Below are positions 10,136 to 63,734 of a stretch of 64,000 bases of DNA, one piece after another; position 1 is the stretch's first letter; each line of letters starts with the position of its first letter. A program made the position numbers and the translations under genes. Below the pieces are notes generated by a model. That model saw nothing but the letters and a program-made list of their open reading frames with translations, searched no databases and was not told the origin of the DNA. This DNA is from Deroplatys truncata. Its lineage: Eukaryota > Arthropoda > Insecta > Mantodea > Mantidae. The stretch is taken from the NCBI GenBank assembly GCA_030765065.1, contig CM060977.1, positions 156,684,052 through 156,748,051 of the forward strand. The letters are read 5' to 3'.

Positions 10136-10148
10136 CGGAAGACAGTGT

Positions 10149-24539: not shown

Positions 24540-25378
24540 ACTTTCTCTACTACGTATAGTAAGTAGGGGAAGTATTGTATTCCACCCAAAAATTCGATAC
24601 CGAGATTTCACCGGAAATATACGTTTTGAGGCCCCCTGAATCCAAAGGATTTTTGGAAACATGTCCATGTGTGTGTCTGTGTGTCTGTGAACAGCATAAC
24701 TCAGAAACGAACACTCGGATAAACACCAAACTTCGTATTTACGTTCAGTATCTTCCAGAGATGCGACACGAAGGTTCTCAAGAAAATCCCCCCACCCCAG
24801 ATTACCCTTTACATGGAATATTTCTCGAAAATTTTAATTTCCTCTAAAATGGCTCTAACGATTTTGATTAAAATATCATATGTTTAAGATATTTTCATGA
24901 CAAATGAAATGTATATCTTGAATTTTCTGAGAATTTTCCATAAGTATTCTTCATTGTGAACAACTTTTGCATAACTAGTAAACCATAAGAGGTAGACAAA
25001 ATTTTACTACACAAAAAATGTAGACCGCGTTAAAATACACAATTTATGTCATATACATTATTTTGTTGAGTGAACCATTTTCGAGATATTGCTTGTTATT
25101 CCCTTGAATTTTCCAATGCTTTTTTCTCAAATGGGAATTCGTTATTCATTTTTGTAATGTCCTGGACATGCAAAGAGAATGGAATGCACTACATAGCAAC
25201 CAGTTCTTAAAAGATTTGACTATCGCTTAAAGCCTACCATATTCCCCTTGCACCTACAAGAGAATTAGCAATAAGATTAACATCTCGATTAACATGAAAC
25301 TTATGGAGAATAAGCGTTTGTAAAAATAGTTTGTACAAGTGTAGAGAAAGTCATGTGAGTGTAACACATCAGATTTTT
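24540..25378 (+). repeat. HINE family copy D, full length
   Basis: Starts ACTTTCTCTACTACG, has a GT tract at about 24668-24690, ends GTAGAGAAAGTCATGTGAGT...CACATCAGATTTTT. The only well-preserved copy within the lipase gene. Confidence 0.88.
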
Positions 25379-30135: not shown

Positions 30136-31004
30136 AGCTGGATTTGTATGCATAATGAAATAGTAAAATATGCATGCAAATATGCAAAAAAATGTAAAAC
30201 ACATGCACCATAAATAAAATAAATAATCAGTATTGTGGATAATCTCTTACCAATACGAATAAAGGCTCTCGTACTTCACCATTAGCGCACATCCGTCAGG
30301 CCGTAGCGAGCCGCAATGAAACTACAGGATTTAACCGCGAGACTCGACGGTAGGCAGAGAAAGCTATGCGAATTTAACAGATGAGATCCTTTCTGATTAG
30401 ATTTTGCGCTGATATGAAATCTGTATACTACTTTTATTATGTTATTTTTTATTTTTCATATTAGAAAACTTAGAAACTGAATTTTCAAATTTGATGTGAT
30501 ACGTTCACACGACTTTCTCTACATCTATCTTTATTAGTGGGTATGCAAACTATTTTTACTAAAGCTTATTTTTTTATCTACTGCGTTTTAATCCAAATCA
30601 AACTTTGCAAAAAACACATTTCGCTATAGATACAGAGAGAACAGCGATAATGAAATGTTTAAGAACTGTACGCTATATGCTGGCATTACGTGCCATATTG
30701 TTTCCATGACATCGCGAGAAGAAACTGAAAATCGCTGAAAGTTTAAAGAATAACAAATATTTAACAATTCAAACCTTTAATACAGGATACCTCAGAAACG
30801 ACTTATACAACAACAAAATTTATTTTAAGTAAATTGTGTGTTTTAAATAGATCTATATTTTTTGTATTGCACGTTTTCGTCTATCGCTTAACGTTTACCA
30901 GTTGTATAAGATTACACAAAATTCCTTCCGAACGAAGAGGACTTCACAAGTTATTCCCAGAAAATTCAAGATATACATTTTTCATCTATAAAATCTTTAA
31001 TATA

Positions 31005-32206
31005 CACTATGTGATCAAAAGTATCCGGTCACCCCCACAAACATACGTTTTTCATCTTAGGTGCATTGCGCTACCACCTACTGCTTGGTACTCATTATCC
31101 GCGACTTCAGTAGTCATTAGACATCGTGAATCAGCAGAATGGGACGCTCCGTGGAACTCACGGACTTCGAACGTGGTCAGCTGATTGGATGTAACTTGTA
31201 TCATAAGTCTGTATGCGAGATTTCCACACTCCTAAACATCCCTAGGTCCACTGTTTCTGATGTGATAGTGAAGTGGAAACGTGAAAGCGTACAGGCCGAC
31301 CTCGTCTGTTGACTGTCAGAGACCGCCGACATTTGAAGAGGATCGTAAAGAGTAATAGGCAGATATCTATCCGGACCATCACATATGAATTTCAAACTGC
31401 ATCAGGATCCACTCCAAGTACTATGACAGTTAGGCGTGATGTGAGAAACCTTGAATATCATGGTCGAGCGGCTGCTCATAAGCCACACATCACGCAGGAA
31501 AATACCAAACGACACCTCGCTTGGTGTAAGGAGCGTCAACATTACACGATTGAACAGTGGCAAAACGTGTGGAGTGACGAATCACGGTACATAATGTGGC
31601 GATCCGATGGCAGGGTGTGGGTATGGCGAATGCGCGGTGAACGTCATCTGCCAGCTTGTGTAGTGCCAACAGTGAAATTCGGAGGTGGTGGTGTTATGAT
31701 GTAGTCGTGTTTTTCCTGGAGTGGGCTTGCACTCGTTGTTTTGCGTAGCACGATCACAGCGCAGACCTACATTGATATTTTAAGCACCTTCTTGCTTCCC
31801 ACTGTTGAACAGCATTTCGGGGACGGCGATTGCATCTTTCAACACGATCGAGCACCTGTTCATACTGCACGGCCTGTGGCGGACAATAACATCCCTGTAA
31901 TGGACTGGCCTGCACAGAGTCCTGACTTGAATCCTATAGAACACCTTTGGGAACGCCGACTTCGTGCCAGGCCGCACCGACCTTCATCGATACCTCTTCT
32001 CAGTTCCGTACTCCGTGAAGAATGGGCTGCCACTCCCCAAGAAACCTTCCAGCACCTGATTGAAAGTATGCCTGCGAGAGTGAACGCTGTCATCAAGGCT
32101 AAGGGCGGGCTAACACCATATTGACTTCCAGCATTACCGATGGAGGGCGCCACGAACTTGTATGTCATTTTCAAGCAGGTGTCCGGATACTTTTGTTCAC
32201 GTAGTG
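31005..32206 (+). mobile_element. Tc1-like transposon, nearly whole
   Basis: The ends are inverted: CACTATGTGATCAAAAGTAT at the left and (reverse complement) CACTACGTGAACAAAAGTAT at the right. The TA target is at 31003-31004 on the left; on the right it is mutated to AA (32207-32208). Length 1202 bp, usual for Tc1. Transposase from ATG 31139 to TGA 32124. Confidence 0.92.
31139..32124 (+). pseudogene. Tc1-like transposase (DD34E), two main lesions
   Basis: Cut-and-paste transposase. The N-terminus MGRSVELTDFERGQLIGC and SVCEISTLLNIPRSTVSDVI form the first helix-turn-helix. A frameshift near 31295 separates this from the rest, which reads HLKRIVKSNRQISIRTI (second helix-turn-helix region), WQNVWSDESRY (first D), an in-frame TAG at 31702, IFQHDRAPVHTARP (second D), and SPDLNPIEHLWE (E). 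Small in-frame losses near ARPVADNNIP and HLWERRLR are likely by comparison with usual Tc1 spacing. The catalytic triad is preserved, so the element is relatively young but not autonomous. Confidence 0.9.
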
Positions 32207-32559
32207 AATGATATTTAAACCAAAATCTTTTGAGCCATTATTTTAGAAAAAGCAAAATTTTCGAGAAATGTTCTACGTAAAGGGTAGTTGGGGCTGGGGG
32301 GATTTTCTTGAACGTCTTCGTGTCGCATCTTTGGAAGATACTGAACCTAAATAGCAAGTGTGGTATTTACCCACTTTTCGTTTTTGAGTTATGCTGTCCA
32401 CACACAACACATGGACCGTTTTCTAAAAAGATTTCTTTTTGGATTAAGGGTGCCTCAAAACATGTATTTGGGGTGAAATCTCGGTATCGAATTCTTGGGT
32501 GGAATGCAATACCTTCTACCTACTAGGTACGTAGTAGAGAAAGTAAAAATAGGAATTAA

Positions 32560-35264: not shown

Positions 35265-36559
35265 TACTCTCTCTCTACTACATATTGTAGGTAGAAATAT
35301 TGCACTCCACCCAAAAATTCATTATGAAATTTCACCGAAAATACACATTTTTAGGTGCTGAATTCAAATAAAGCATTTTTACTTTCTCTACTACGTATAC
35401 TAAGTAGGTAAAGTATTGTATTCCACCCAAAAATTTGATACCGAGATTTCACCGGAAATATGTTTTGAGACCCCTGAATAAGAAAATTTTTTTTTTGGAA
35501 ACATGTCCGTGTGTGTGTCTGTCTGTGTGTCTGTATGAGAACAGCATAACTCAGAAACGAACAGTCGGATAAACACCAAACTTGGTATTTAGGTTCTGTA
35601 TCTTCCAGAGATGCGACACAAAGGTATTCAAGAAAATCCCCCCACCCCAGATTACCCTCTACATGGAACATTTTTCGAAAATTTTAATTTTCTCAAAAAC
35701 GGCAGTAACGATTTTAATTAAAATATCATATGTTTAAGATATTTTCATGACAAATGGAATGTATATCTTGAATTTTCTGGGAATGTCTCCAAAAGTATTC
35801 TTCATTGTGAACGACTTTTGCATAACTGGTAAACCATAAGAGATAGACAAAATTTTACTACACAAAAAATGTAGATCGCGTTACAATACACAATTTATGT
35901 CATATACATTATTTTGTTGTTGAGTGAAACATTTTTGAGATATTGCTTGTTATTCCCTTAAATTTTCCAATAGTTATACTTTTTCTCAAATGGGAATTCG
36001 TTATTCATTTTTTTTATCCTGGTAATGCAAAGAGAATGGAATACTCCACATAGCAACCATCGCTTAAAATATTCAACTATCGCTTAAAACCTACCAATTC
36101 CCCTTGCATCTACAAGAAAATTAGTAATAAATTTAACATCTCGATATCTCGATTAACTTGAAGCATATGGAGAATAAGCGTTTGTAAAAATAGTTTGTAC
36201 AAGAGTAGAGAAAGTCATGTGAGTGTAACACATCAGATTTTTTGAAGCATGTCTGCGTATGTATCTATCTGTGTGTCTGTGAAAAGCATAAGTAAAAAAA
36301 TAGTCGGATAAATACCAAACTTGGTACTTGTGTTTAGTATCTTCCAGGGAATGTGACAGGAACATTTTCAAGAAATACGCTTTGTATGGAGCATTATTCG
36401 AACATTTTGATTTTCTCAAAAATGGCTCTAACTATTTTGATTAAAAATATCACATGTTTAAGATATTTTCAGGACAAATGAAATGTATACCGTGAATTTT
36501 CTGGTAATGTCCCCAAAAATCCTCTTCATTCTGAATAACTTTTGCTTAATTGGTAAAGC

Positions 36560-36604
<45 letters not shown>

Positions 36605-36972
36605 AATATTACTGCACAAAAATTTAGAACACGTTAAAATACACAATATATGTCATATAATTTTTTTGTTTGCTTTTTTTTGTGAGGTGAACCATTTCCG
36701 AGATATTCCTTGTTATGTATTTGAATTTTCAACTCTTATACTTTTTCTCAAATGGGAATTTGTTATTCATTGTTTTTATGTCCTGGACATGCAAGACAAT
36801 GGAATGCTCTACATAGCAACCAGCGCTTAAAAGATTTGAGTATCCTTAAAGCCTATCATATTCTGTAAATGTTTATCTCGATTAATATGAAATAGATGGA
36901 GAATAATCGTTTGTAAAAATAGTTTGTACAAGAGTAGAAAAAGTCATGTGAGTGCAACACATCAGATTTTTT
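35265..36972 (+). repeat. HINE family copy F (host), split by copy G
   Basis: Left part 35265-35380 (ACTCTCTCTCTACTACAT to aaagcattttt). Right part 36244-36972 (gaagcatgtctgcg to ACACATCAGATTTT). The two flank copy G exactly at the family's internal GCATTTTT/GGAAACATG position. It carries an (AG)n run at 36562-36601. Confidence 0.88.
35381..36243 (+). repeat. HINE family copy G, full-length reference copy
   Basis: Reference description of the family, about 860 bp, non-coding. Left end ACTTTCTCTACTACGTATAC directly after a T-run. A short GT tract at 35507-35535. Right side GTAGAGAAAGT (inverse of the left 11-mer), then ATGTG-AGTGTAA-CACAT able to form a hairpin, then CAGATTTTT. A left terminal repeat, an inverted partner lying about 25 nt inside the right end, a 3' hairpin, an internal microsatellite and insertion in T-runs without target duplication match Helentron-associated elements (HINE/DINE-1 type). 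Rolling-circle mobilisation is inferred from this architecture; no Rep/helicase gene is in the window. Confidence 0.8.
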
Positions 36973-37014
36973 TGTTTATATACCCTCTACAAACTAGTCT
37001 TAAGGAAGCTTCCT

Positions 37015-37145
37015 GCTTTCTCTGCTATGTATAGTAGGTAAGCAGGGGAAGCATTCATTCCACCCAAAAATTCGATACGGAAATTTCACCGGAAATACAT
37101 GATTTGAGGCCACCTGAATCCAAATAAAATATTTTTGAAAACATG

Positions 37146-37181
<36 letters not shown>

Positions 37182-37885
37182 TGTGTGTGTGTGTGTGTCT
37201 GAACACCATACCTCAAAAACGAAAAGTCAGATAAATGCCAAACCCTGTATTTGGGGTTAGTACCTTCCAAAGATGCGACACGAAGATTTTAAATAAAATC
37301 CCCCCACCCCACACTACCCTTTACACGGAAGAGTTTTCGAAATTTGTGATTTTTTAAAAAATGGCCCTAACAATTTTGATAAAAAGCCATATATTAAAGA
37401 TATGTATATTACAAACAAAATGAATATCAATCTTGAATTTTCTGGGAATAGCCTGTGATGTCCACTTCATTTGGAAGAAATTTTGTATAATGTTATAACT
37501 GGTAAACTTTAAGCGAAAGACGAAAACATACTACACAAAAAGTGTACTTCTCTTAAAAACACACAATTTATTTCAAATAAGCTTTTTTTTCCTGTGGCAT
37601 AAGAAATTTCTGCGATATCTGTTATTTAACGTTCGAAATGTTAGTTTCTTGGTTATTCTCTTAAGTTTTGTCAGCATTCAGTTCTTTCTCGCGATTGCGT
37701 GAAAACAGTATGGAATTAAAAGGCCAGCGTATAGTGTCCAGTTCTTAAACATTTGACTATTGCTGTGCTCTTTGTACCTATAACGAAATCTGTAATGAAG
37801 CTATTTTTACAAAGGCTTATTTGAATTAAAGTGTAGTAGGCAAAAAATGAGCTTTGGTAATAATAGTTTGTAGTAAAGTAATCAA
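37015..37885 (+). repeat. HINE family copy H
   Basis: Left end GCTTTCTCTGCTATGTATAG; (GT)n at 37149-37198; right part diverged and lacking a clean hairpin. Confidence 0.75.
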
Positions 37886-37889
37886 TATA

Positions 37890-39110
37890 AAGCTTCTCGG
37901 AGTTCTGCAAGACCTGATAGATGGCAGAATTGTCTTCAACTATGATGTACTGTGCTGCCATCTCTCCACTTCCGCATGAAACTCATCTCCTTGACCTTCA
38001 GACGTCGCTTCTTTAACCAGTGGATTTTTTATTTAATAAGCTTATTGGCCAGATAAATCAGTATATACAGCTAGATAATTACACGGTTACAAGATTCTAA
38101 ATTGTATAAATTTCTAAGTAATACATTTCAAGGATTACAAAATTTCAAATATTCCAACATCTAGATTTTGTTCTGTGATTGATACTATATATGGAAGTTC
38201 CATTTAACTTTGCCCCGTATCTCTTAACGGTCACGTGCAGTCCTTCCATTAGCTGCTGACGTTGAATAGATTATGTGATGCAAAATGTGTAGTTGCTTAT
38301 TTAATATGATCATTTTATATCAATAGCGGGAGGAAGCACTTTTGGTTGTGGCTAATGAAGTGCTGCTTGCCATAATTATAATGATTTGTGTGAGCTGATA
38401 CCTGCTTTCGTACATCGCAGTTGTGCCATATTCCTGCATGTATATTATGGAAAACGGATTATGAATATTGATATCTGTGGAATCATTTAAATTATATATT
38501 ATATCACATGCAAATGTTATTTTATAACATAATTAATGAAAAATTTAACGACAATATAGTAGCAATAAAGAACACAATAACCTCGAAAATCGCCATTAGA
38601 GAGAACTTTTGTCGAACCTCTTGGAAACTTTCGCCCTAGTTTAGAAACCCATGGCACAGGTCACCCAAAACTTATGCATGTTCATTTCATCACCAAACAT
38701 GAAACTTCTAAATGTTACTTAAACAATAATACACATAGCAACAAGATAACTAATTTAACTGACACCAAGATTAAAAACTACAGAATACCCAGAACTCCAC
38801 AGAACAATAGAAAATACGTAGGTTTTTTTTTAAAAATTGACTACATTCCTCAGCAAACGACTCATTCAACTAACTCTAGTGTACTATATCTTATTTCTAC
38901 ACTAAACTTTTGTACTAAACATGTCAAATACCTCCTCATATATTAATAAATTCAGTACACATTACTTATCGATTTAACTAACAAATTATTGCTAATTTGC
39001 TCAACAGAAATTATTAGAGTTTCATATGATATTACATGCTCCATAGTGTATTGTTTTATCTAAGTCACTATAAGATCTAGGCTCTCTTAGGTACTATAAA
39101 TAAATATATT
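37890..39110. other. No gene recognised
   Basis: AT-rich DNA between HINE copies, with no assignable motif. Confidence 0.35.
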
Positions 39111-39116
39111 TAAAGA

Positions 39117-39483
39117 AATTTTAAAGGATTTCAGCTTCTAATTGCAGAAAATTTAGGATATAAATTTATTTTATGTCTGCTTAGTAATTTAAATGAATAT
39201 TTTAATGAACATATTTAGAACGATTTAGACAAAATAAAAAGAACACAAGAACTTTCATGTAAAGAGTTGCTTTAGAGTGGGAGAATTTCGGTGAAAATAT
39301 TTCCTTATATCCTTAGTAGATGCTCGGCAACTTAATATGCACCCCATTTCTACTTTCTCTACTACTTCCAATAAGAAGGGGAAGTATTGTACTCCACCCA
39401 AATATCCGATGTCAAGATTTCACCGGAAATACACGTTTTGAGGCTCCTTGAGCAAAGAAAAAAAAGCATTTTTAGAAAAAGGT

Positions 39484-39523
<40 letters not shown>

Positions 39524-40270
39524 AGCATAATTCTAAAAAAAAAATTGAATAAATACCAAACTTGGTATTTACTTTCTCTATCTTCCAAAGATGCGACACA
39601 AAGATTTTCAAGAAAATACTCCCACAACAAACTACCCTTTACATGGAACATTTTTGAAACTTCGGATTTTCTGAAAAATGGTTATGATTGTTATTAAAAT
39701 ACATGCATTAAATATATTTACATTACAAAGAAATGTATATATTTTCAATTCTTTGGGAATAGTTTATAAAAACCTCTTGGTTCGGAAGGAAATTTATATA
39801 ATCTTGCATAACCGGGAAACAAGCGATAGACGAAAACGTACTACACAAAAATGCATTCTCTTTAAAACACAATTCATTTCAAATAACTTTTTTTGTAGCA
39901 TTTCCGAGACATCCGTTATTAATGGTTTGAATTGTTCAATACTGAGCCATTCTTTTAATTCCTTGTCACTTTTCAAATGTTTCTCGCGATATCAGTAAAG
40001 AATTTGGCATTTTAAGGCTAGGGTATAGCGTCCAGTTCTTAAACATTTGACTACTGCTATTCCCTTTGCACCTGTAACGAAATGTGCAACGCAGATATTC
40101 CCGAATATTTCTCGATTAAAATGAAGTAGATAGGGAAATAAACTTTCGTAAGAATAATTTGTATATACACTAATAAGGAAAGAGCGCGGAGAAAGTTATG
40201 TGAATGCAATACATCAGATTTTTCGTTTTTCAGTTATACTGCTATCCCTTACATATTGAGACACAATATC

Positions 40271-40313
<43 letters not shown>

Positions 40314-40440
40314 ACACACAAGCCTTTTGTAAATGTGTTTTTATTCGAAGGGCCTGAAAACGTGTATATCCAGTAAAATCAGGTATCAAAATTTTGGGTG
40401 GAATACAGCACCTCTACTATAGGTAAATGGAAGAGCAGGG
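39117..40440 (-). repeat. HINE family copy I (host), split by copy J
   Basis: Left part about 39117-39351 (catgtaaagagttgctttag..., up to caccccatttc). Right part 40224-40440 (cgtttttcagttatactg..., CT and CA runs at 40261-40318, to aggtaaatggaagagcag). Together they read as one reverse-oriented, end-truncated copy. Confidence 0.75.
39352..40223 (+). repeat. HINE family copy J, nested in copy I
   Basis: ACTTTCTCTACTACTTCC start, (GT)n at 39488-39520, right end ACATCAGATTTTT. Full length. Confidence 0.85.
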
Positions 40441-41088
40441 AAAACTGGTTAAGTATTAGAACCTAGGGAAGAGAATCTCTAAATACGATCCCGTTCTATG
40501 TGCTTTCAACCCCAAATAAATTATTATTACCAACTTGTCTTTATAGGTGTGCTAAGTTACTGGTTACCTCAACTTGAAGCAGGCTGCAAATCAAGGTCTT
40601 CCGGTATATTCATGGAAAACGCCAAATGCCAAATAATTGGCGGTAGCCAGTCCACTATGCAAGAAAGAATTTGTTACAAAATGCGAAACATTGTTACTAA
40701 TATAATGCAGAGCTGGAGAAAACTCGCATTACAGATTGCTTAGTTAGTATTTTCCTGGGGAATCGAATATATCATTTTGCAATCGAATGTACATCGACAT
40801 AAACCTAAATTATCAGCAAGCAGGCATATTGTGGCGACCTCTTACGCCGGACGAACTCGTTATCTTGTTGTAGTGGTAGACTCTGCAGTTATCCGACCGA
40901 CAGGCATCATGACGAAAGACAGTATTGAAGAAGGAGTACACAAGCTGCAGTTCTGTAAAGTACATCTGGACCTCAGCTTCACGGATATTTCTTACCATGT
41001 TCCACTCAACAAAGGTATGTACCATTGTATTTTATCTCGGCTCTCCTAGACGAGAGCGAAAAATTTACGAAATGTTTTATCTTTTTAG

Positions 41089-41890
41089 CTTCCCTACCAC
41101 GTGCATTGTGTTTGTATACATAGGTATTGCATTCCACCCAAAACTTCGATACCCAGATTTCACCGGAAACACGTTTTGAGACTCATTGAAACTAAAAGAA
41201 GTATTTTTAGAAAAAGCTTTGCATGTGTGTGAAAAAAACATAACTCAAAAACGAAAAGTCGCATAAATATCAAACTTGGTACTTAGTTCAGTATCTTCCA
41301 TAGATGTAATATGAAGGTTTTCAAGAAAATCCCCACCATTAACTACCCTTTAGATGAAATATTTTTCAACATTTTGATTTTCTAAAAATGTTTCTAACGA
41401 TTTTGATTAAAATACATGTTGATATTTCCATGACAAATACAATGTATATCTTGAATTTTCTGGGAATAGCCTGTGAAGTCCTCTTTATTTGTAAGGAATT
41501 TTATATTATCCTGTATAGTGTAGTAAACGTTAGCGATAGACGAAAACGCACTGTATAAAAAATGCAGATCTTTTTAAAACATACAGTTTATTTAAAATAT
41601 TTTTTTAGCATCAGCCATTTCAGAGATATCCGTTATTAATGGTTCGAATTGTTAAATACTTTATCATTCTTTTAAAGTCCTGTGGATTTTCATTTATTTC
41701 TAAAACATTTGACTATCGCTGTTCCCTTCGTACCGTAACGAAATGTGTAATATAGCTATTTCTGCAGATGTTTATCTCGATTAAACTGAAGTAGATAGAA
41801 AAATAAACTTTCGTAAGAATAATTTGTACATGTATTAATAAACGATAGGAGGTAAAGAAAGTTATGTGAATGTAACACATGAGATTTTTT
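41089..41890 (+). repeat. HINE family copy K
   Basis: Diverged left end (CTTCCCTACCACGTG). Central sequence is typical. Right end GTAACACATGAGATTTTT. Confidence 0.8.
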
Positions 41891-42119
41891 TATTTTGTGT
41901 TAATTTCCTTAAAATTCCGCGATCCATTTAGAAAATTAACTAATGCATATTTTTTTAAAATTTAGGAAAGCTTTTCACACTTATATAATTACAGAACAAC
42001 TATAAAAAGTGCGAACGTTAATAAACTAATTTCATACAAAACTTAAATTCCCTTCATAATAAATGCATTATTATTATTGTTATTATTATTATCATCATTA
42101 TTAATGTATCTAGAAGATT

Positions 42120-42800
42120 TCGTTCTTCTTCCTTTAAAGTATTAGGGCCCTATGGCCTGTTACGTCCACACAGTTGAATTTTCAACCCAATGACCTGAAG
42201 ATCTTCCCATTTGGACGATAGTGAAGCATGGCGTTTGGAATTCTATTTGCACGCATTCGATGCAGGTGATTTAAAGCCTTTTTTCTAGTAAAGGTTCTAA
42301 TTGTGTTTTTCCATTGTTTCCTCGTTATGTTTATGATCCCAATTGGCAGGTATATCCTGCTGTGTATTTCATAAATTTTATTTCATTAGAAGTTATTCTG
42401 CCTTCATTTGTCTTTCTTAATGCTCATAACAAAGTACATACAGCGAATTCTACTATGCCTTTGTACGAAGGAAGGTTTCACAACGTTATTAATTTATGTT
42501 TTTATCTATTTATGAGCTTTCTGTGAAGTTTTTACTTCATTGAAAAAGCATAATGTGCATCCGAAATATGTAAATGAATTTAAGGCAAGATTTTTGAATC
42601 CAAACATATTTTGCTAGTACAGGGTATTTTCTTGAGAAAGTGAACTTCTGTTTTTATTTATTGATTTTCATATCATACTTAAGACCAATTTTGTTAAAAT
42701 TATGTACAGAACGTTCTAAATCCTCTTCTAAGGAATCTATCATACCTAAATCATCTACAAAGAGTAGAGGGTTTTATAAAGCAAATATGTGAAAACTAAA
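42120..42800 (-). pseudogene. Decayed LINE, reverse-transcriptase C-terminal part
   Basis: The minus strand, across frames, reads LFVDDLGMIDSLEEDLERSV and NFNKIGLKYDMKIN. This is the FADD...NNxxxKYNMxI pattern of RTE-like or related insect LINEs. Further on comes DHKHNEETMEKHN, similar to their C-terminal DHKRNEEIxEEL. Many stops. The clade assignment is tentative. Confidence 0.55.
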
Positions 42801-42953
42801 ATGAGTATCCCATTGAACAAATTATGAAATGAACTATAATATGTGTAATATGTATAGAAAGCTGGTGCTGTTTATGAGACATTTTCTCAGAATTTCTATT
42901 GTTTTCACTTTAATGCTTATCAATATTTTCAAATACTTTTTTAAAATAAAAAA

Positions 42954-43183
42954 TCTGATGTGTTACACTGACATGAATTTCTCTACTCTTTTACAAACTA
43001 TTTTTACAAATGCTTATTCTCCATATACTTCATGTTAATCGAGATATCGAGATGTTAATCTTATTGCCAATTTTCTTGTAGATGCAAAGGAAATTGCTAG
43101 GCTTTAAGCTATAGTCAAATATTTTAAGTGGTGGTTGCTATGTGGAGTATTCCATTCTCTTTGCATTACCAGGACAAAAAAAA
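42954..43183 (-). repeat. HINE family copy L, fragment
   Basis: Only the hairpin-end third (TCTGATGTGTTACACTGACATG to gcattaccaggacaaaaa). It abuts copy M in the same orientation. No continuation after M was found, so this may be a tandem or truncated insertion. Confidence 0.75.
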
Positions 43184-43985
43184 TCTGATGTGTTACACTC
43201 GCTGACTTTCACTACTCTTGTACAAACTATTTTTACAAACGCTTATTCTCCATATGCCTCACATTAATCGAGATATCGAGATATTAATCTTATTGCTAAT
43301 TTTCTTGTAGGGGAATATGGTAGCTTTTAAGCGATAGTCAAATCTTTTAACCGCTGATTGCTATGTGGCGCATTCCATTCTCTTTGCATGTCCAGGACAT
43401 AAAAATGAATAACGAATTTGAGAAAAAGTACAAGTATTGGAAAATTTAAGGGAATAACAAACAATATCTCGAAAATGGTTCACTCAACAAAAAAATGTAT
43501 ATGACATAAATTGGTATTTTAGCGCGATCTACATTTTTTGTGTAGTAAAATTATGTCTATCTCTTATGATTTACCAGTTATTCAAAAGTCGTTCACAATA
43601 AAGAATACTTTTGGAGACATTCCCAGAAAATTCAAGATATATATTTTATTTGTCATGAAAGTATCTTCAATTAAAATTTTCTAAAAATGTTCCATGTAAA
43701 GGGTAATCTGGGGTGAGGGAATTTTCTTGAAAACCTTCGTGTCGCATCTCTAGAAGATACTGAACCTAAATACCAAGTTTGGCGTTTATCTGACTGTTCG
43801 TTTCTGAGTTATGCTGTTCACAGACACACACACACACACACAGACACACAGACGGACATGTTTCCAAAAATGCTTTTTTTGGATTCAGAGGGTATCAAAA
43901 CATATATTTCCGGTGAAATCTCGGTATCGAATTTTTGGGTGGAATACAATACTTCTCCTACTTACTATACATAGTAGAGAAAGTA
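43184..43985 (-). repeat. HINE family copy M, full length
   Basis: TCTGATGTGTTACACTC start, CA tract at 43822-43850, ends CATAGTAGAGAAAGT. Confidence 0.85.
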
Positions 43986-44299
43986 AAAAGAATAATTGTT
44001 TCCGCGCATAATGACATTTTAACCAAGTAATGCTATCTTGGGTATTTATAACAAACTTTCCTATCTTTGTATGAAATATTTCTTACCTTGGTTTTCTTGT
44101 TCTGGGTGAAGGGAAGAACCTTCTAACAAAATAATCCCTTTTCAGAGTGTGACACGTATAATTGATCAGTGATCACTATATTAGAAATTCAGTGTAACTT
44201 TGGGGATATTGGAAGTAACTTTAAAGACATATTCCAAAACACCGTTGAAAGTCTGTTGCAGTAGATATAATTCTTGGCTTGTAACGAACACAAAGTAAA

Positions 44300-44700
44300 T
44301 GTTCGTTAAACTGAAGTAAGGAAGCATCTTACTACAAATTCGATCGGGAGATTTCAAAGGAAATTTATATTTTGAGGCGCCAAATCAAACATATTACGAA
44401 GAAAATTAGTGTAACTCAAATAAATCTCAGATAATACATATAAGTTAGAAACCCAAACAAAACCTAGAAAACCATTAGAAAATTGCTTCCAACCCAGACA
44501 AATTTAGAAATATTTTCATTATCTTTTCCTATTCTGAAAATAATTAACGATTCTAATTAAAATATCCAAAGTATCAGATTTTGGCTATAGAACAAAACCT
44601 GTATTTTTAATTTCCTGTAAATTTGGAATGAAATTATTTTTATTTTCGTTGAACCTTCTGGTATATCTCGTGTCACGTGTATCTAGGAACCAATATTGGT
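44300..44700 (+). repeat. HINE family copy N, very diverged
   Basis: Weak but collinear match: ttcgatcgggagatttcaaaggaaatttatattttgaggcgcc corresponds to the family segment after the left end, and later blocks follow in order. The oldest-looking copy. Confidence 0.45.
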
Positions 44701-45087
44701 CATTTCCGAATGTTCACAGAAGACGACCAAAGTAGAGAAACCAGGCTCAAATTCTCGAATAAGTCATTGATCGTAAAAAGTAGTAGGCATATTAATGAAC
44801 TCTGTATTTTCCTACAGTGAGTTTTTGTTTATGGTATCCCAGATGTATAAAACTAATGCAAAGGGTTTCTCAGACTCTTTAGATACAGAAAATTGAAAGC
44901 AAACCTTTAGTTTGTCATGTCAATATATCAAAGATATGATATTTTAATAAAAATAAAGATTTTTTGGGGGGAATGAAAATAACGACGTTTTTCTTTAATT
45001 GTGGTAAGAATTTAATTAAAACCGTAGCCTTTTATCTTTAAAATATGCCTTGCCAAAGTACTGCGTAATTTGGTACGTATCGCTTTT

Positions 45088-45208
45088 ACTTTCTCTACCG
45101 GTACGTAGTACGAGGTAGGTAGAGAAGTATTGTATTCTATCCAAAAATACCAAATCGAAATTTCACAGAAATATGTGAATCAAAGAAAGCATTTTCTAGA
45201 AAAAAGGT

Positions 45209-45257
<49 letters not shown>

Positions 45258-45904
45258 GGAGTGTGTCCATGAACAGCATAATTTAAAAAAAGTCATTAAT
45301 ACCAAAATTGATACTTATGTTCACTATCTTCAAAAGATACGACACGGAGATTTTCAAGAAAATTCCCTAACTCCAAACTATCCATTATATAAAACAGTTT
45401 TCGAAGATTTCGATTTTCTCAAAAATGGCTCCAATATATGGTATTTTAATAAAAATCGTTAAAACTATTTACATGATAAATAAAACATATTTTTAATTTT
45501 CTGGAAAGCCTGTGAAGTCCTCTTTATTCAAGAATTTTGTATAATCTTGTATAGCAGGTAAAGTTTTCGAAATCGATGAAAAGTGCTACATAAAAAATGT
45601 AGAACTTTTTAAACATATAATTTATTTCAAATAACGTTGGCACCAGCATTTCAGAGATATACTTTATTAATGGTTCGAATTATTCAAAACTAGGTCATTC
45701 TTTAAAAGGCTATCGACATGCACTTGTTCCTCCGATTGCATACAAAGGGTATGGAATTTTATGGCCTGCTGCATATAGCGTCCAGTTCTTAAACGTTTCT
45801 GATTAAAATGAAGTAGATAGAAAAATAAGATTTCGAAGAACAGTTCGTATACCGCTATACACTAGAGGGCAGAGAAAGTTATGTGAGTGCAACATATAAC
45901 ATTT
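45088..45904 (+). repeat. HINE family copy O
   Basis: ACTTTCTCTACCGGTACGTAG start; long (GT)n at 45210-45256; right end AGAGAAAGTTATGTGAGTGC. Confidence 0.82.
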
Positions 45905-46148
45905 GTCAATTATGCGTTTCACGCGCGCGCTCTCACCCCCAAATATATTAACACATTTTAGAAAAGCTACCCTCTTTGTAATTAGAGGAACTCAAACCTT
46001 GCATTTCCAATGAAATCTTAATAAAGTTCTTATTTGCGTGCAATGTAACCTCTGCATATAAAATTAAGGAATAAAGAACATGTGATAAAACTCAAAGTTT
46101 GAAAATTGATATATTATTGTGTATTTATCTGATGATAAAGGCTAAAAA

Positions 46149-46950
46149 TCTGATGTGTTACACTTACATGACTTTCTCTACTCTTGTACAAACACTTATT
46201 CTCCATATGCCTCATGTTAATCGAGATGTTAATCTTATTGCTAGTTTTCTTGTAGATGCAAGGGGAATATGGTAGGCTTTAAGCGATAGTCAAATAATTT
46301 AAGAGATGGTTGCTATGTGCAGTATTCCATTCTTTTTGCATTACCAGGACAAAAAATGAATAACCAATTCCCATTTGAGAAAAAGTATTAAGTATTGGAA
46401 AATTAAAGGAATAACAAGCAATATCTCGAAAATGGTTCACTCAACAAAAAAATGTATATGACATAAATTGCGTATTTTAAACGCGATCTACATTTTTTGG
46501 GTAGTAAACTTTGTCTATCTCTTATGGTTTACCGGTTATGCAATACTTTTGGAGACATTCCCAGAAAATTCAAGGTATACGTTTTATTTGTCATGAAAGT
46601 ATCTTAAATATATGATATTTTAATCAAAATCGTTAGAGCCATTTTTGAGAAAATTAAAACTTTCGAAAAATGTTCCATGTAAAGGGTAATCTGGGGTGGG
46701 GGGATTTTCTTGAAAATCTTCGTGTCGCATCTCAGGAAGGTACTGAATCTAAAAATCAAGTTTGGTGTTTATCCGACTGTTCGTTTCTGAGTTATGATGT
46801 TCACACAGACACACACACGGACATGTTTCCAAAAATACTTTTTTTGGATTCAGGAGGCCTCAAAACATGTATTTCCTGTGAAATCTCCGAATCGAATTTT
46901 TGCGCGGAATTCAATGCTTCACCTACTTACTATACATAGTAGAGAAAGTA
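46149..46950 (-). repeat. HINE family copy P, full length
   Basis: TCTGATGTGTTACACTTACATG start; CA tract at 46801-46819; ends TATACATAGTAGAGAAAGT. Confidence 0.87.
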
Positions 46951-47362
46951 AAACCAACAACAACAACAACAACAAAACTGAGTGTATAAATCAAACTCGA
47001 ACGTTTACGGCTATAAATTGTGAAACATTTTATTTATTTCATAGTTTCTATTTATTGTTATAATTAGAAAGTGTAAATGACGCAGAAATTGTATTGTGCA
47101 AGTTGGAGGTAATGAGCAACATGACCTTAGAAAAACTGGTTCCAATTGCAACATGTAATTATCTTGCAGAAATTATTTCAGTCTATGTAGAATGTTAACC
47201 ACTACTAACAAAAGATAATTACTTTTGATAGACGTGAGTCATACAATAAGAAGCACCTTCAGCCACTGTAGGAAGTCATTTATGCAGTAGTAATTATCTT
47301 GGAGTGCAGCAAGGTTACAGTGAGCTCTGGAATATACTGGATGAAAGTATCCACTCATTTAA

Positions 47363-48800
47363 AAGTAGGGGAAGTATTGCATTCCACTGAGATTTCACCA
47401 GAAATATATGTTTCGCGGTGCCTAAATCCAAATAAATCATTTTTGAAAATGCTTTCACCTATGGCTCTAACGATTTTGATAAATACCATACATAAAAGAT
47501 ATATGCATGACAAACAAAACGTATATGTTTTATTTTCTGAGAATAGACAAGGAAATTCACTTCATTCGGAAGGAGTTTTATATAACCTTGTATAACTTGT
47601 AAACGTTAAGCGATAGACAAAAAGGTACCACACAAAAAATTGTAGATCTCTTAAAAACACACAATTTACTTTCATTAAATTTTTTGTGGCATAAACCGTT
47701 TCTGAGATATCCATTATTGAAGGTTCGAATTGTTCATTAGTTTTTACTTTCTCTACTACGTATAGTAAGTAGGGGAAGTATTGTATTCCACCCAAAAATT
47801 CAATACCGAGATCTCACTGAAATCCAAAAAAAGCATTTTTGGAAACATATTCGTGTGTGTGTGTGTCTTTGTGTGTTTGTGTCTAACTGTCTGTGAACAA
47901 CATAACTCAGAAACGAACAGTCGGATAAACACCAAACTTGGTTTTTAGAATTTTTACCTTCCTGAGATGCGACAGAAGGTTTTCATGAAAATCCCCACAC
48001 CCCAGATTACCCTTTACATGGAACATTTTTCGAAAATTTTAATTTTCTCAAAAACGGCTCTAACGATTTTGTTTAAAATATCATATGTTTAAGAGACTTT
48101 CATGAAAAATGAAATGTATATCTCGAATTTTCTGGGATTGTCTCCAAAAGTATTCTTCATTGTGAACGACTTTTGCATAACTGGTAAACCATAAGAGATA
48201 GACAACATTTTACTACACCAAAAATGTAGATGGCATTAAAATCATATACATTTTTTTGTTGAGTGAACCATTTTCGAGATATTGCTTGTTATTCCCTTAA
48301 ATTTTCCAATACATATACCTTTTCTCAAATTCGGTATTCAATTTTTTTGTCCTGGTAATGCAAAGAAAATGGAATACTCCACACAGGAACCAGCTCTTAA
48401 AATATTTGACTATAGCTTAAAGCCTCCAATTCCCCTTGCATCTATTAGCGATAAGATTAATATCTCGATATCTCGATTAACATGAAGCATATGGAGAATA
48501 AGCGTTTGTAAAAATAGTTTGTACAAGAATATAGAAAGTCATGTGAGTGTAACACATCAGATTTTTCGTTTAGTCCCATCGATTTTCAGTTGTTTCTCGT
48601 GATTGCATGGAAACAGTATGGAATTTTAAGGCCAGCATATAGAGTCCAGCTCTTAAACAATTGACTATCGCTGTTCTCTTTGTATCTATAACGAAATGTG
48701 TAACGTAGTTATTTTTGCACAGGTTTATTTAGATTAAATGTAGTAGCTAGAAAATAAGCTTTACTAAGGTTAGTTTGTATATTCACTTCTCGCTGCTGTC
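47363..48800 (+). repeat. HINE family copy Q (host), split by copy R
   Basis: Left part 47363-47745 (aagtaggggaagtattgc to ttcgaattgttcattagttttt). Right part 48567 to about 48800 (cgtttagtcccatcgattttcagttg onward). The break falls in the family's gttcgaattgttca...tttt segment. Confidence 0.78.
47746..48566 (+). repeat. HINE family copy R, nested in copy Q
   Basis: ACTTTCTCTACTACGTATAG start after a T-run; GT tract about 47851-47880; ends ACACATCAGATTTTT. Very close to copy G, so probably a recent insertion. Confidence 0.88.
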
Positions 48801-49009
48801 GTATGAACAACATAATAAGTTGCGATTCATACTCACTCCTCCTCTTTACATTTAAATAATTCCTATACAGTCCTACCAAATATATAAGAAACATTAAATT
48901 GAGCGTTATTTATGGACGCTCTTTAGCTGCTGTGGTACTTGGCGTCCCATTCTATATTTGGAGTGAAAGACCAGTAATTTTGCTCGGAGGCCACTTTATC
49001 AGGCTTTAT

Positions 49010-49115
49010 CCCTTCAGAAGGAAGCCATGGTAAGGGTTTTTACGCCCGGAAAAATACATCGCCTTCCCCCGGGTAGGAACCTACGACCTTGGGAACCGGA
49101 AGACGACCAACCAAA
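49010..49115 (-). repeat. tRNA-derived SINE fragment
   Basis: The minus strand has GTCGTCTTCCGGTTCCCAAGG and GTCGTAGGTTCCTACCCG, resembling the anticodon-arm side and B box of a tRNA-headed SINE. Boundaries uncertain. Confidence 0.35.
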
Positions 49116-49665
49116 TGTATAAAAATATTCCCCATGAACTAATATGTTCGTACTGACATAATCCATGCTTGTACTATTCTGCAATATTCCACACATGCTG
49201 CGCAGCGCCTTATTAGGCGGTAATGTTGAGGTTACCCAAAAACCATTTTGTCTTCTACATTTATTCATAACTAATTTATTTTCGTGCGGAAAATCCTTCT
49301 TTGGCTATAGCCATGACACTTTGCAGTATGACATATACCATCTCACAATCACTACAGATAACTCTGCTCCTACCACTACAAAGAGATAAGGGCTTATTTC
49401 GCCCCTAAGGCTGTTAAGGGCGATGCTCCACTTTAGCTACCCGGAATTGATTTGGGCTCTTATTTTCGTGTTAATTTTGGTCGGTCACATTTGTAGTAAG
49501 GATTGACGCCATCGTTGCTTTCTCTACTACGTAGCGGAAGTATTGTATTCCACACAAATTCCGTGTCGAGATTTCATGGAAAATATGCTTTGATGTCCCC
49601 TAAACCCAAGAAAAAGCATTTTTAGGAAACGTTCGTGTGTATCTATGAATAGCATAACTAAAAAA

Positions 49666-50516
49666 TCTTATGTTACACTCACATGACTTTGTCTACTCTT
49701 GTCCAAACTATTTTTACAAAACGTTTGTTCTCCATATGCTTCATGTTAATCGAGATGTTAATCTTATTGCTAATTTTCTTGTAGATGCAAGGGAAATTGG
49801 TAGGCTTTAAGCTATAGTCAAATATTTTAAGAGCTGGTTGCGTGTGGAGCATTCCATATTCTTTGCATCACCAGGACAAAAAAATTAAATAACGAATTTG
49901 AGAAAAAGTATAAGTATTGGAAAAATTAAGGGAATAACAAGCAATATCTCGAAAATGGTTCACTCAACAAAAAAATGTGTATGACATAAATCGTGTATTT
50001 TAACGCGATATACATTTTTTGTGTAGTAAAATGTTGTCTATCTCTTATGGTTTACCAGTTATGCAAAAGTTGTTCACAATGAAGAATACTTTTGGAGACA
50101 TTCCCAGAAAATTCGAGATGTACATTTCATTTTTCATGGAAATATTTTAAACATATGATATCTTAATCAAAATCGTTAGAGCCATTTTTGAGAAAATTAA
50201 AATTTTCGAAAAATGCTCCATGTAAAGAGTAATCTGGGGTGGGGAGATTTTCTTGAAAACCTTCGTGTCACATCTCTGTAAGATACTGAACCTAAATATC
50301 AAGTTTGGTGTTTATCCGACTGTTCGTTTCTGAGTTATGCTGTTCACAGAAACACACACACACACACTCACACAGACACACACACGGACATGTTTCCAAA
50401 AATGCTTTTTTTGGATTCAGGGGGTCTCAAAACATGTATTTCCGGTGAAATCTCGGTATCGAATTTTTCGTGGAATGCAATACTTCCCCTACTTACTATA
50501 CGTAGTAGAGGAAGTA
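49666..50516 (-). repeat. HINE family copy T, nested in copy S
   Basis: TCTTATGTTACACTCACATG start directly after an A-run; CA tract 50350-50385; ends TATACGTAGTAGAGGAAGT. Confidence 0.88.
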
Positions 50517-51130
50517 ATAAACGCCAAACTTCGTATTTAAGTTCAGTATTTTTCAAAGATGCAACACCAGGATTTTCAGGAATATCCGCCCTCCACAAAC
50601 TACCCTTTACATGGAGATTTTACGAAATTGTTTTTTTTTCCCAAAAAAATGTCTCCAACAATTTTGATTAAAATACCATATATTAAAGATATTTACATGA
50701 CAAATAAAATTTATATCTTGAGTTTTCTGGGAATAGCCTATGAAGTCCTTTTTATTCGGAAGGAATTTTGTATATTTTGTATTACTCGTAAAAGTTAAGC
50801 GATAGACGAAAACGCACTACACAAAAAAATGTATATCTCTTTAAAACACAATTTATTCACAATAAAGTTTTTTGTTGCACAAGCCATTTCTGAGATATCT
50901 GTTATTAATGGTTCGAGTTGTTCATTTCTTTGTCATTCTTTCAAAGACTTGTCAACATTCAGTTGTTTTTCGCGCTTGCATGGAAACATTATGTAATGTT
51001 GAGGCCAGCGTATAGCGTCCAGTTCTTAAACATTTGGCTATCGCCATTCCGTTTGTATCTACAACGAAAAATGTAATACATTTTCTTTAATGCTTGAATT
51101 GGATTAAAATGAAGCAGATAATAAAAAAAG

Positions 51131-52029
51131 TCTGATGTGTTACACTCACATGACTTTCTCTAACCTTATACAAACTATTTATACAAACGCTTATTCTCCA
51201 TCTACTTCATGTTAATCGAGATAAACATTTGCAGAGTCTATCTTATTGCTAATTTTCTTGTAGATGTAAGGGGAATATATATTTACACGGGCAATATAGA
51301 AATACAGTAGCCTTTAAGCACATACATATCTCTTAATAGCTGGTTGCTAGGTGCAGCACCATTCCCTTTCCCACAGATTAATACTCTTTGCATATCCAAG
51401 ACAAAAAAAATTGAATAAGGAATTCCCATTTGAGAAAATTATTGAAAAATTTAAGGGAATAACAAGCAATATCTCGAAAATGGTTCACTCAACAACAAAA
51501 AATGTATATGACATAAATTGTGTATTTTAACGCGATCTACATTTTTTGTGTAGTAAAATTTTGTCTATCTCTTATGGTTTACCAGTTATGCAAAAGTCGT
51601 TCACAATGAAGAATAATTTTGGAGACATTCCCAGGAAATTCAAGATATACATTTTATTTGTCATAAAAATATCTTAAACATATGATATTTTAATCAAAAT
51701 CGTTAGAGCCATTTTTCAGAAAATTAAACTTTTCGAAAAATCTTCCATGTAAAGGATAATCTGGGGTGGGGGATTTTCTTGAAAACCTTCGTGTCGCATC
51801 CTTGGAAGATACTGAACCTAAATACCAAGTTTGGTGTTTATCCGACTGTTCGTTTCTGAGTTATACTGTTCACAGACAGACACACAGACACGCACACGGA
51901 CATGTTTCCAAAAATGCTTTTTTTGGATTCGGGGGGTCTCAAAACATATATTTCCGGTGAAATATCGGTATCGAATTTTTGGGTGGAATACAATACTTCC
52001 CCTACTTACTATACGTAGTAGAGAAAGTA
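51131..52029 (-). repeat. HINE family copy U, nested in copy S
   Basis: TCTGATGTGTTACACTCACA start after ataaaaaaag; ends TATACGTAGTAGAGAAAGT. Slightly longer than the norm because of an extra block near 51275-51390. Confidence 0.88.
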
Positions 52030-52299
52030 AGAAGCTTTAGTAAGAATAGTTTATACGCCCACTAATTAACTATAGAGGGTAGAGAAACTAGTTTTAATAT
52101 ACATCAGATTTTTCTTTAGTATTTTTATTTGTTTACAGACCTAAATTTCAACATACGTTTGAATTTAGATTTCTATGGAAATGTGTTCTGATTTCGCGAT
52201 AGTGTGCTACTGCAGTCAATGTAACTAACTTCCTTTGATGGATTCTTGTGGCATTTGGTTTTCTTGTTCACCGATGATTAAGTTGTGGTATGCGCAGCC

Positions 52300-62945: not shown

Positions 62946-62962
62946 GAATATATTGAAAATAA

Positions 62963-63734
62963 TCTTATGTATTACATTCACCCGACTTTCTTTACCCTCT
63001 ATCACTTATTAGAGAGTATATAAATTATCCATATGAAAATTTATTGTCCTATGTACTTCATTTTAATCTAGATAAACTTTGGCAAAAATTGCTGCATTAC
63101 GCATTTCGTTGTGGATATAATGGGAATGGCGATAGTCAAATGTTTTAAACTGGTGCTATATGCTGGCCTTAAAAGAAGTATTGAAGAACTGGAACTGTTA
63201 CTAACGGATATCTCGGAAATGGCTGATGCCACAAAAAAGAGTTATTTGAAATAAATTGTGTGCTTTAAAGAGATTTACATTTTTCGTCTATCGCTTAACG
63301 TTTACCAGTTATACAGGATTATACCTACAAAATTCCTTCCGAAGGAAGAGGACTTCACAGGATATTCCCAAAAATTCGGGATATACATTTTATTTTTCAT
63401 GTAAATATCTTTAATATATGATATTTTAATCACAATCGTTAGAAGTATTTGTTTTTAGAACATAAAAAATCTTGGAAAATGTTTCATGTAACGGAAGGTT
63501 GGAGTGGGGGGGATTTTCTTTAAAATCTTCATGTCACATCTTTGGAAGGTACTGACCTTAAATATCAAGTTGGGTGTTTTCCGACTTTTCATTTTTTAGT
63601 TACGCTGTTCACACACACACCACAGACCTTTTTATAAAAATCCTTTTCTTTTTGATTCAAGGTGCCTAAAAATCCCGATATAAAAATGTTGAGTGGAATG
63701 CAATAACTTCTCTACCTGCTAAGTAGAGAGAGTA
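62963..63734 (-). repeat. HINE family copy V
   Basis: TCTTATGTATTACATTCACC start; short CA tract at 63610-63625; right terminus eroded (ctaagtagagagagt). Belongs with the diverged copies C and E rather than the 35-52 kb group. Confidence 0.78.

What the first reader, a model, noticed from the sequence alone, without database searches (positions are those of the whole stretch)
35265..52113. Dense self-nesting cluster of one Helentron-like (HINE) family
About 22 copies of an approximately 860-bp non-coding family lie in the window, about 16 of them between 35.2 and 52.1 kb. Each full copy has ACTTTCTCTAC at one end and its inverse GTAGAGAAAGT about 25 nt inside the other. A small hairpin (ATGTG...CACAT), a T-run end and an internal GT microsatellite complete the plan. 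This is the plan of Helentron-associated elements (DINE-1 type). The pile-up suggests a preferred target or a local burst.
Basis: partly seen in the sequence, partly recalled or inferred. Interest (0 to 1): 0.75.

Follow-up and report, generated by a model that had tools for sequence, protein, structure and literature searches.

The report
Mantis jumping-DNA family nesting in itself
The cluster is a pile of copies of one small rolling-circle jumping element (a helper-dependent Helentron) that, judged from a small random sample, fills about a fifth of what looks like a praying mantis genome, very often inserts into its own copies, and was not found in the small samples taken from the largest chromosome, probably the X.

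Summary
A profile of the ~860-bp family finds 34 pieces in the window, 25 of them in 35,265-52,113, where it covers 67.6% of bases. The HINE/Helentron reading is supported: the genome holds elements with the same ends and open frames up to 2,543 aa; the one frame scanned has Rep, Pif1 helicase and a weak C-terminal endonuclease match.

The cluster is not a special locus. In 20 random 3-kb samples the family covers 19.6% of bases (bootstrap 11.5-28.5%), two of them above 50%. The assembly matches Deroplatys truncata. The exact 38-bp 3' end occurs 98,329 times.

Self-nesting favours an internal T-run: 7,686 filled against 32,727 empty, versus 217 against 106,324 at another T-run. Nests yield composites with extra ends; two were seen moved as units, and five of five autonomous copies whose 5' end was read carry a captured 5' half.

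Unexpectedly, 707-Mb C16, probably the X, has none in 13 kb sampled and none of the 40 copies scored.

The parts
24539..25377 (+). HINE copy, profile 2-859, 93% to consensus
35269..35380 (+). 5' piece (profile 4-121) of an older HINE split by the next copy
35380..36241 (+). full HINE (94% to consensus) inserted in the T-run GCATTTTT|GGAAACATG of the older copy; 5' sub-terminal repeat 35381-35391, 3' inverse 36205-36215
36237..36970 (+). remainder (profile 116-859) of the split older HINE
37016..37880 (+). old HINE copy, profile 4-825
39351..40222 (+). old full-length HINE copy
41089..41888 (+). old HINE copy, profile 5-859
43180..43985 (-). full HINE, 5' part of a composite [full copy][extra 3' half]
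42950..43184 (-). extra 3' half (profile 625-859) abutting the 3' end of the copy above; no 5' half found on its other side
45087..45797 (+). old HINE pieces, profile 2-160 and 133-690
46145..46950 (-). full HINE copy
47745..48565 (+). full HINE copy
49517..49665 (+). 5' piece (3-178) of an older HINE interrupted by the next, opposite copy
49664..50516 (-). full HINE (92%) inside the older opposite copy
50517..51119 (+). continuation (190-786) of the interrupted older HINE
51127..52029 (-). full HINE copy
6874..7728 (-). old full-length HINE outside the cluster
30488..31020 (-). HINE piece 333-857; a Tc1/mariner-like frame (name from recall) lies between it and the piece below
32208..32545 (-). 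HINE piece 2-350
62961..63734 (-). old HINE outside the cluster

Best explanation
The repeats are one HINE family: non-coding Helentron derivatives that copy themselves by rolling-circle transposition using the Rep/helicase/endonuclease of Helentrons with the same ends. The HINE is in effect the first ~740 bp plus the last ~40-120 bp of a Helentron relative. Shown by sequence: shared ends, long open frames in near-identical copies, insertion at T-runs without a consistent target duplication, and frequent insertion into a T-run inside the element itself. The autonomous Helentrons read also carry a HINE 5' half, best explained by such a self-insertion. Inferred: the endonuclease or Rep chooses T-runs; the transposase starts at any 5' end and stops at any 3' end within a nest, so that composites with two 5' or two 3' ends move as units; and repetition of this, in a genome already about one fifth HINE, makes pile-ups like the one in the window.
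For: Rep family PF14214: 152 matches in the own genome (291 candidates, 150 scored, not all matches listed); 18 listed rows have open frames of 2,108-2,543 aa without stops. In the one copy read in full (C4) the 2,441-aa frame holds DUF6570, Pif1 and a weak endonuclease match (PF14529, E 4e-5, 23.9 bits, below Pfam's cut-off of 27.4), with Rep motif GSPHEH and endonuclease-like motifs found by eye. Five copies match the 3' end of a sixth at 99.4-100% over 507-550 bp. Five of five readable 5' ends begin TTTTTACTTTCTCTAC and hold [HINE 1-638][HINE 4-664], alike at 96-100% per 200-column window, gaps left out, with different left flanks. Counted by hand from the listings, at least 22 of the 100 listed Helentron-type 3' ends lie 4.3-5.0 kb downstream of a Rep match (measured from its lower coordinate). 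Whole-genome exact counts: HINE-type 3' end 98,329, Helentron-type 175. Hot T-run: right junctions 7,686, left junctions 15,246, empty 32,727; second T-run 217 against 106,324. Of 12 right-junction loci read, 5 have a 5' half on the left (nests), and in 2 others (L062, L065) the unit [full][3' half] interrupts an opposite HINE whose joined flanks align to the consensus at 89% and 69%.
Against: The last 60 bp of HINE and Helentron align at 48 of 54 paired positions but over 66 columns, so the 80% subfamily rule is not clearly met; the last 100 bp at 73 of 93 paired, 107 columns. The 3' hairpin is not more stable than shuffles. No second, non-overlapping frame of 200 aa or more (an RPA gene) was seen in the one 18-kb Helentron stretch read. 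The PDB sequence search of the last 433 aa found Pif1 helicases and Helraiser but no endonuclease. The joined flanks of L062 and L065 are not letter-perfect empty sites. The HINE 3' halves that follow Helentrons C10, C8 and C13 are only 91-96% alike, so they were not simply carried along with the 99.4-100% alike Helentron ends; C10 has such a half on the right but no HINE in the ~250 bp on its left. The two T-run patterns differ in stringency (N{0,6} allowed at one only). Composites could also arise by slippage or recombination between T-runs; only 2 of 12 loci show a unit insertion directly. Flanks were paired by distance only.
Confidence: 0.93

Rival explanations
1. A MITE: a deletion derivative of a cut-and-paste DDE transposon with terminal inverted repeats and target duplications.
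For: The two sub-terminal repeats are exact inverses, and DINE-1 was itself described as a MITE (PMC2374699, abstract in the listing). T-runs at either side could look like a 5-T duplication: 12 of 17 paired flanks agree.
Against: The 3' repeat lies 27 nt inside the end; 5 of 17 paired flanks differ, including TTATT against TTTTT; Helentrons with the same ends exist. A mirrored ~9-kb structure that might have been a TIR element showed HINE pieces and repetitive frames in the 4.0 kb read, no transposase recognised by eye; no profile search was run on it.
Confidence: 0.03
2. A canonical (Helitron1-type) non-autonomous Helitron.
For: Other Rep-bearing elements of higher Pfam score but mostly broken frames occur in this genome.
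Against: Two such loci (9 kb each) held no pair of HINE-like ends around the Rep frame; one has a short HINE piece near its edge. Insertion is in T-runs, not A|T; the partner has an endonuclease-like C-terminus and the GSP Rep signature of Helentrons.
Confidence: 0.02
3. The cluster is a local burst or a special target locus (for example heterochromatin).
For: 67.6% cover against 9.3% to the left and 6.5% to the right within the window.
Against: Two of 20 random 3-kb samples exceed 50% (L073 67%, L085 55%); aligned stretches in the cluster range from 61% to 95% identity to consensus, so they are of many ages. No stretch as long as 17 kb was sampled elsewhere.
Confidence: 0.1
4. Extra 5' and 3' halves arise by replication slippage or unequal exchange between T-runs rather than by insertion into self.
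For: 3' halves occur in tandem at ~231-bp spacing and 5' halves at ~620-670 bp; the element's 3' end and the internal site are both T-runs.
Against: Symmetrical nests [5' half][full][3' half] exist (L006, L060); Helentron C13 sits between HINE halves; within a locus 3' halves are 0.85-0.98 alike, between loci 0.85-1.0 with mean 0.93, so extra halves are not clearly closest to their own neighbour.
Confidence: 0.25

Closest known systems
HINEs and Helentrons (Thomas, Vadnagara and Pritham 2014, PMC4067079; sections 6 and 7 and passages read)
   Same: Sub-terminal inverted repeats, 3' palindrome, microsatellite, T-rich target without duplication, a Rep/Pif1/endonuclease partner with a GSP motif, variable Ts at the ends.
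   Different: Repeat of 11 bp here rather than 12-15; no RPA frame seen in the copy read; larger genome share in the sample; strong targeting of one internal T-run; partner with a captured HINE half.
DINE-1/INE-1 of Drosophila (from the description in PMC4067079)
   Same: Overall plan, including a short inverted repeat nested in the 5' sub-terminal repeat (5' fold).
   Different: Sequences were not compared here.
Composite FoHelis with several 5' ends in Fusarium (PMC5148889, passages read)
   Same: Self-insertion, then transposition from the outer 5' end to the first 3' end, was proposed there as the source of double 5' ends.
   Different: Here the junctions run to thousands, double 3' ends occur too, the site is a fixed T-run, and the autonomous copies read carry a captured half.
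Oyster HINEs carrying satellite-like arrays (PMC7492417, passages read)
   Same: HINEs linked to tandem repeats; no target duplication, oligo-T targets.
   Different: There the arrays lie inside HINEs; here a whole HINE lies inside each of the two 3,409-bp tandem units read near the start of C1.

Membership tests
Helentron-associated element (HINE) | Sub-terminal inverted repeats, a few nt from the 5' end and inside the 3' end | tested here: met
   ACTTTCTCTAC / GTAGAGAAAGT, the latter 27 nt from the end
Helentron-associated element (HINE) | Palindrome near the 3' end | tested here: met
   ATGTG...CACAT present, kept in Helentron and HINE ends; folding energy no better than shuffles
Helentron-associated element (HINE) | Insertion in T-rich/TT targets without target-site duplication | tested here: met
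   First 100 listed left flanks of 53,845 (pattern asks for T at -14): 81 end in TTTTT, 15 in TTATT, ATATT, GTATT or TAATT, 4 other; 17 flanks paired by distance, 5 differ
Helentron-associated element (HINE) | Internal microsatellite and no coding capacity | tested here: met
   GT/CTGT tracts; no frame >=120 aa in the window spans a copy
Helentron-associated element (HINE) | Autonomous partner with the same ends (at least 11 bp identical sub-terminal repeat) | tested here: met
   11 of 11 identical in 6 of 6 3' ends and 5 of 5 5' ends seen
Helentron-associated element (HINE) | Subfamily rule: at least 80% over the last 60 bp | tested here: inconclusive
   48 of 54 paired positions, 66 alignment columns
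Helentron (the partner) | Rep + Pif1-type helicase | tested here: met
   PF14214 above cut-off; PF05970 E 6.6e-29; PDB hits to PIF1 and Helraiser
Helentron (the partner) | C-terminal AP-type endonuclease | tested here: met
   Weakly: PF14529 E 4e-5, 23.9 bits, below Pfam's own cut-off of 27.4; motifs MGDFN and SDHKPI at residues 2362 and 2422 of 2441 (motif reading from recall); no endonuclease hit in the PDB search
Helentron (the partner) | Rep motif with S between G and P (GSPH) | tested here: met
   QMRGSPHEH in the C4 copy against the rule in PMC4067079
Helentron (the partner) | RPA frame (typical of the mite Helentrons) | tested here: inconclusive
   No other non-overlapping frame >=200 aa in the one copy read; no profile search for RPA was run
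Canonical Helitron | 5' TC, 3' CTRR after a hairpin, A|T insertion (ends recalled; A|T also in PMC5148889) | tested here: not met
   Ends TTTTTACTTTC and CAGATTTTT, T-run targets
MITE of a DDE transposon | Terminal inverted repeats plus target duplication | tested here: not met

The most novel reading that the evidence does not exclude
One HINE family makes up roughly a quarter of the autosomes of a dead-leaf mantis yet is essentially absent from its 707-Mb X chromosome. It grew by self-insertion at one internal T-run, which keeps building new mobile composites, including the autonomous element itself. The X exclusion would mean that this rolling-circle transposition happens where or when the X is closed, for example in the male germ line with a silenced X.
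Probability: 0.4. Interest if true: 0.75.

Novelty: new member of a known kind. Interest (0 to 1): 0.58.

Why it matters
If the sample holds, a single non-coding Helentron family fills about a fifth of a 4.3-Gb insect genome, about three times the Helitron shares of 6% and 6.62% quoted in PMC4067079 for a bat and a butterfly. That gives a rich natural data set on rolling-circle insertion: tens of thousands of exact empty and filled sites. It makes the self-insertion model of composite Helitrons testable by counting, and if C16 is the X it offers an unusually sharp case of a transposon sparing a sex chromosome.

Tried and rejected
Viral contigs were scanned for the 27-bp 3' end: 0 exact matches. 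The other Rep group (higher Pfam score, broken frames) was checked as a possible partner in two loci and gave no pair of HINE-like ends. A 5-T target duplication was considered because left T-runs are exactly five long in 61 of 100 flanks; it was set aside on the 5 of 17 unlike pairs and the TTATT-type ends. A reversed-sequence control of the random sample gave 0 matches. ARAGORN (bacterial code) found no tRNA genes in the window. Papers: nine searches. The one that asked for Deroplatys with Helitron found a single paper, PMC12908712; its text reports Helitron bursts in D. truncata (section 6) and has no occurrence of 'Helentron' (counts). Its supplementary tables, which would give the Helitron share, were not seen. 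I found no report of Helitron depletion on a mantis X, of which I saw only the listing. An earlier count said 14 of 20 random samples were hit, and that says 14 of 17 autosomal; the right figures are 13 of 20 and 13 of 17. The Fisher test used the wrong 14 of 17 and is not relied on.

Rows dropped or limits: the random draws leave out C11, C12 and small contigs, whose sizes I did not have; of the first draw 20 of 20 places were fetched, of the second 0 of 20, of the C16 draw 4 of 6. Hot-site counts are exact-match only. The 12 loci are every eighth row of a listing of 100, all on C1 between 14 and 44 Mb. One search scored only 40 of 6,586 candidates and has none on C12 or C15 either, so its chromosome spread may be biased.
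Full report
Observation. The 11-mer ACTTTCTCTAC occurs 29 times in the window with at most one mismatch, against 1.27 expected. Copy 35,374-36,243 matches dozens of other stretches in the window. Ten aligned copies, one of them truncated at the 5' side, show one plan: T-run, ACTTTCTCTACTACGTATAG..., a GT/CTGT tract, and a 3' end near GTAGAGAAAGTCATGTGAGTGTAACACATCAGATTTTT. A profile made from 14 copies gives an 860-bp consensus and 34 pieces in the window, 25 of them in the reported interval, which they cover to 67.6%.

Where it is. The window lies at C3:156,684,052-156,748,051 of a 4.29-Gb genome. I take the genome to be this dead-leaf mantis. The paper states that D. [quoted passage not shown]

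Abundance. The exact 38-bp 3' end occurs 49,066 + 49,263 = 98,329 times, the reversed control 0; some of these are units of tandem arrays. In 20 random 3-kb samples the family covers 11,762 of 60,000 bp (19.6%; bootstrap 11.5-28.5%) and 13 of 20 samples are hit; the reversed sequences give none. Of about 11,700 aligned bp, 48% lie in alignments below 70% identity and 18% above 90%, so copies are of many ages. As an inference, this is near a million full-length equivalents. For comparison, PMC4067079 quotes Helitron shares of 6% and 6.62% for a bat and a butterfly (passage).

Partner. Pfam's Helitron_like_N finds 152 matches. One group has long open frames: 30 listed rows of at least 1,000 aa and 18 of 2,108 aa or more. 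In the copy read in full (C4; L039+L040) the 2,441-aa frame carries a PF04843-like N-terminal domain, charged repeats, DUF6570, Rep with GSPHEH, Pif1 helicase and an endonuclease-like C-terminus that stays below Pfam's cut-off. Five copies match the 3' end of a sixth at 99.4-100% over 507-550 bp and end GTAGAGAAAGTTATGTGAATGTAACACATCAGATTTT; copies C10, C8 and C13 are followed directly by a HINE 3' half, and these halves are only 91-96% alike. The Helentron-type end occurs 175 times exactly. First 120 bp against HINE: 115 identical; last 38: 36 identical. The profile of the HINE matches the inner 5' region of Helentrons up to position 738 and their last ~40 bp, with weak similarity over the last ~100 bp, so the HINE looks like a deletion derivative of a Helentron relative.

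Captured half. In five of five copies whose 5' end is in view (C9, C1, C13, C10, C4; the sixth stretch was too short) the element starts with [HINE 1-638][HINE 4-664]. The stretch is 96-100% alike between copies per 200-column window, gaps left out, while the left flanks differ. The simplest history is that a Helentron landed at the T-run of a HINE, and the outer 5' end became the element's own.

Target. Among the first 100 listed left flanks (of 53,845, pattern with T at -14, all on C1) the T-run is exactly five long in 61; 15 have TTATT or similar. At the right, TTTTT follows CAGA in 79 of the first 100 listed (of 72,068). Of 17 copies whose two flanks were paired by distance, 12 show TTTTT on both sides and 5 differ, so the Ts are not a strict duplication. 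At the internal site near position 630 the listed empty runs are mostly T7-T8, the listed right junctions likewise, and left junctions were searched as T5.

Hot site. Right junctions 7,686, empty sites 32,727 (19.0% of the two together); left junctions 15,246. At the T5 run near position 120 the figures are 217 and 106,324 (0.2%). The patterns are not of equal stringency, but the gap is about ninety-fold; part of it may be multiplication of composites rather than fresh insertions. Direct head-to-tail junctions number 3,154.

Composites. Of 12 right-junction loci (every eighth row of the first 100 listed), L057, L059, L060 and L061 have a 5' half on the left, as nests should, and L055 a slightly shorter one (to 593); the other 7 do not within the ~1.75 kb read. 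In two of these 7, L062 and L065, the unit [full][3' half] interrupts an opposite HINE whose joined flanks align to the consensus (89% over 276 columns, 69% over 193), so an inner 5' end and an outer 3' end seem to have moved together. In the window, 43,180-43,985 with 42,950-43,184 has this shape. PMC5148889 had proposed self-insertion as the source of double 5' ends (passages); the present counts fit that model and extend it to 3' ends. Slippage between T-runs remains possible for part of them.

Window cluster. The pile-up needs no special locus: older copies offer T-runs, younger ones land in them, and comparable density turns up in 2 of 20 random 3-kb samples. No other stretch of 17 kb was examined for density.

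The X. All 13 kb of random sequence from C16 (707 Mb; 7 places) lack the family, against 11,762 of 51,000 bp (23.1%, bootstrap 14.5-32.4%) from autosomes, 13 of 17 samples hit; the chance of this under equal density is about 7.5e-4, treating samples as independent. None of the 40 copies scored (which also has none on C12 or C15) and none of the 30 long Rep frames listed is on C16, though 16 shorter listed Rep matches are (chances 7e-4 and 4.5e-3 if spread by length). The 3.3-3.6-kb loci of four C16 Rep matches also lack HINEs, but so do 14 of 16 autosomal ones, so these add little. In PMC12908712 the X of H. coronatus is described as the largest chromosome and the two X chromosomes of T. sinensis as the largest two (passages); that C16 is the X of this genome is my inference.

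Other forms. Between about 20 and 123 kb of C1 the hot site recurs every ~3.4 kb; two units read are 3,409 bp, 99% alike, each with one whole HINE. Mirrored pairs of left junctions about 5-9 kb apart recur on C1; 4.0 kb of one of them held HINE pieces and repetitive frames, no transposase recognised by eye.

Verdict. A HINE family with a known kind of partner; the class is ordinary. What is not ordinary is its share of the sampled genome, the single hot site inside itself, the captured half in the autonomous copies, and the apparent absence from the largest chromosome.

Noticed in passing
G000 C16 (L070, L077, L079, L088-L091): No HINE in 13 kb of random sequence from the 707-Mb chromosome, presumably X, against 23% of 51 kb from autosomes; none of the 40 copies scored and none of 30 long Rep frames listed lies there.
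   Followed up: partly
G000 C1:~20,000-123,000 (L053): Tandem array with a ~3.4-kb period near the start of chromosome C1; the two 3,409-bp units read each hold one complete HINE.
   Followed up: partly
G000 C1 near 13.83, 22.03, 26.12 and 32.88 Mb (L086, L087): Mirrored structures about 5-9 kb long with HINE 5' halves facing outwards; one, read in part, has repetitive frames in its centre.
   Followed up: partly
L039/L040, N-terminal part of the 2,441-aa frame: The Helentron protein begins with a match to PF04843 (herpesvirus tegument N-terminal domain, E 7e-10, above cut-off) and has long charged tandem repeats; frame lengths differ between copies.
   Followed up: no
window 31285-32124: Two adjacent frames that look like a Tc1/mariner transposase (from recall, no profile search) between two HINE pieces (30,488-31,020 and 32,208-32,545), which may be one copy split by it.
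   Followed up: no
window 8195-10136: Tandem array of a 68-bp unit, 20 copies at 90% (8195-9567) going on less regularly to 10136, open in several frames.
   Followed up: no
G000 C1:76,053,557-76,063,862: Nine head-to-tail HINE junctions at 1.2-1.4 kb steps: a local HINE tandem array.
   Followed up: no
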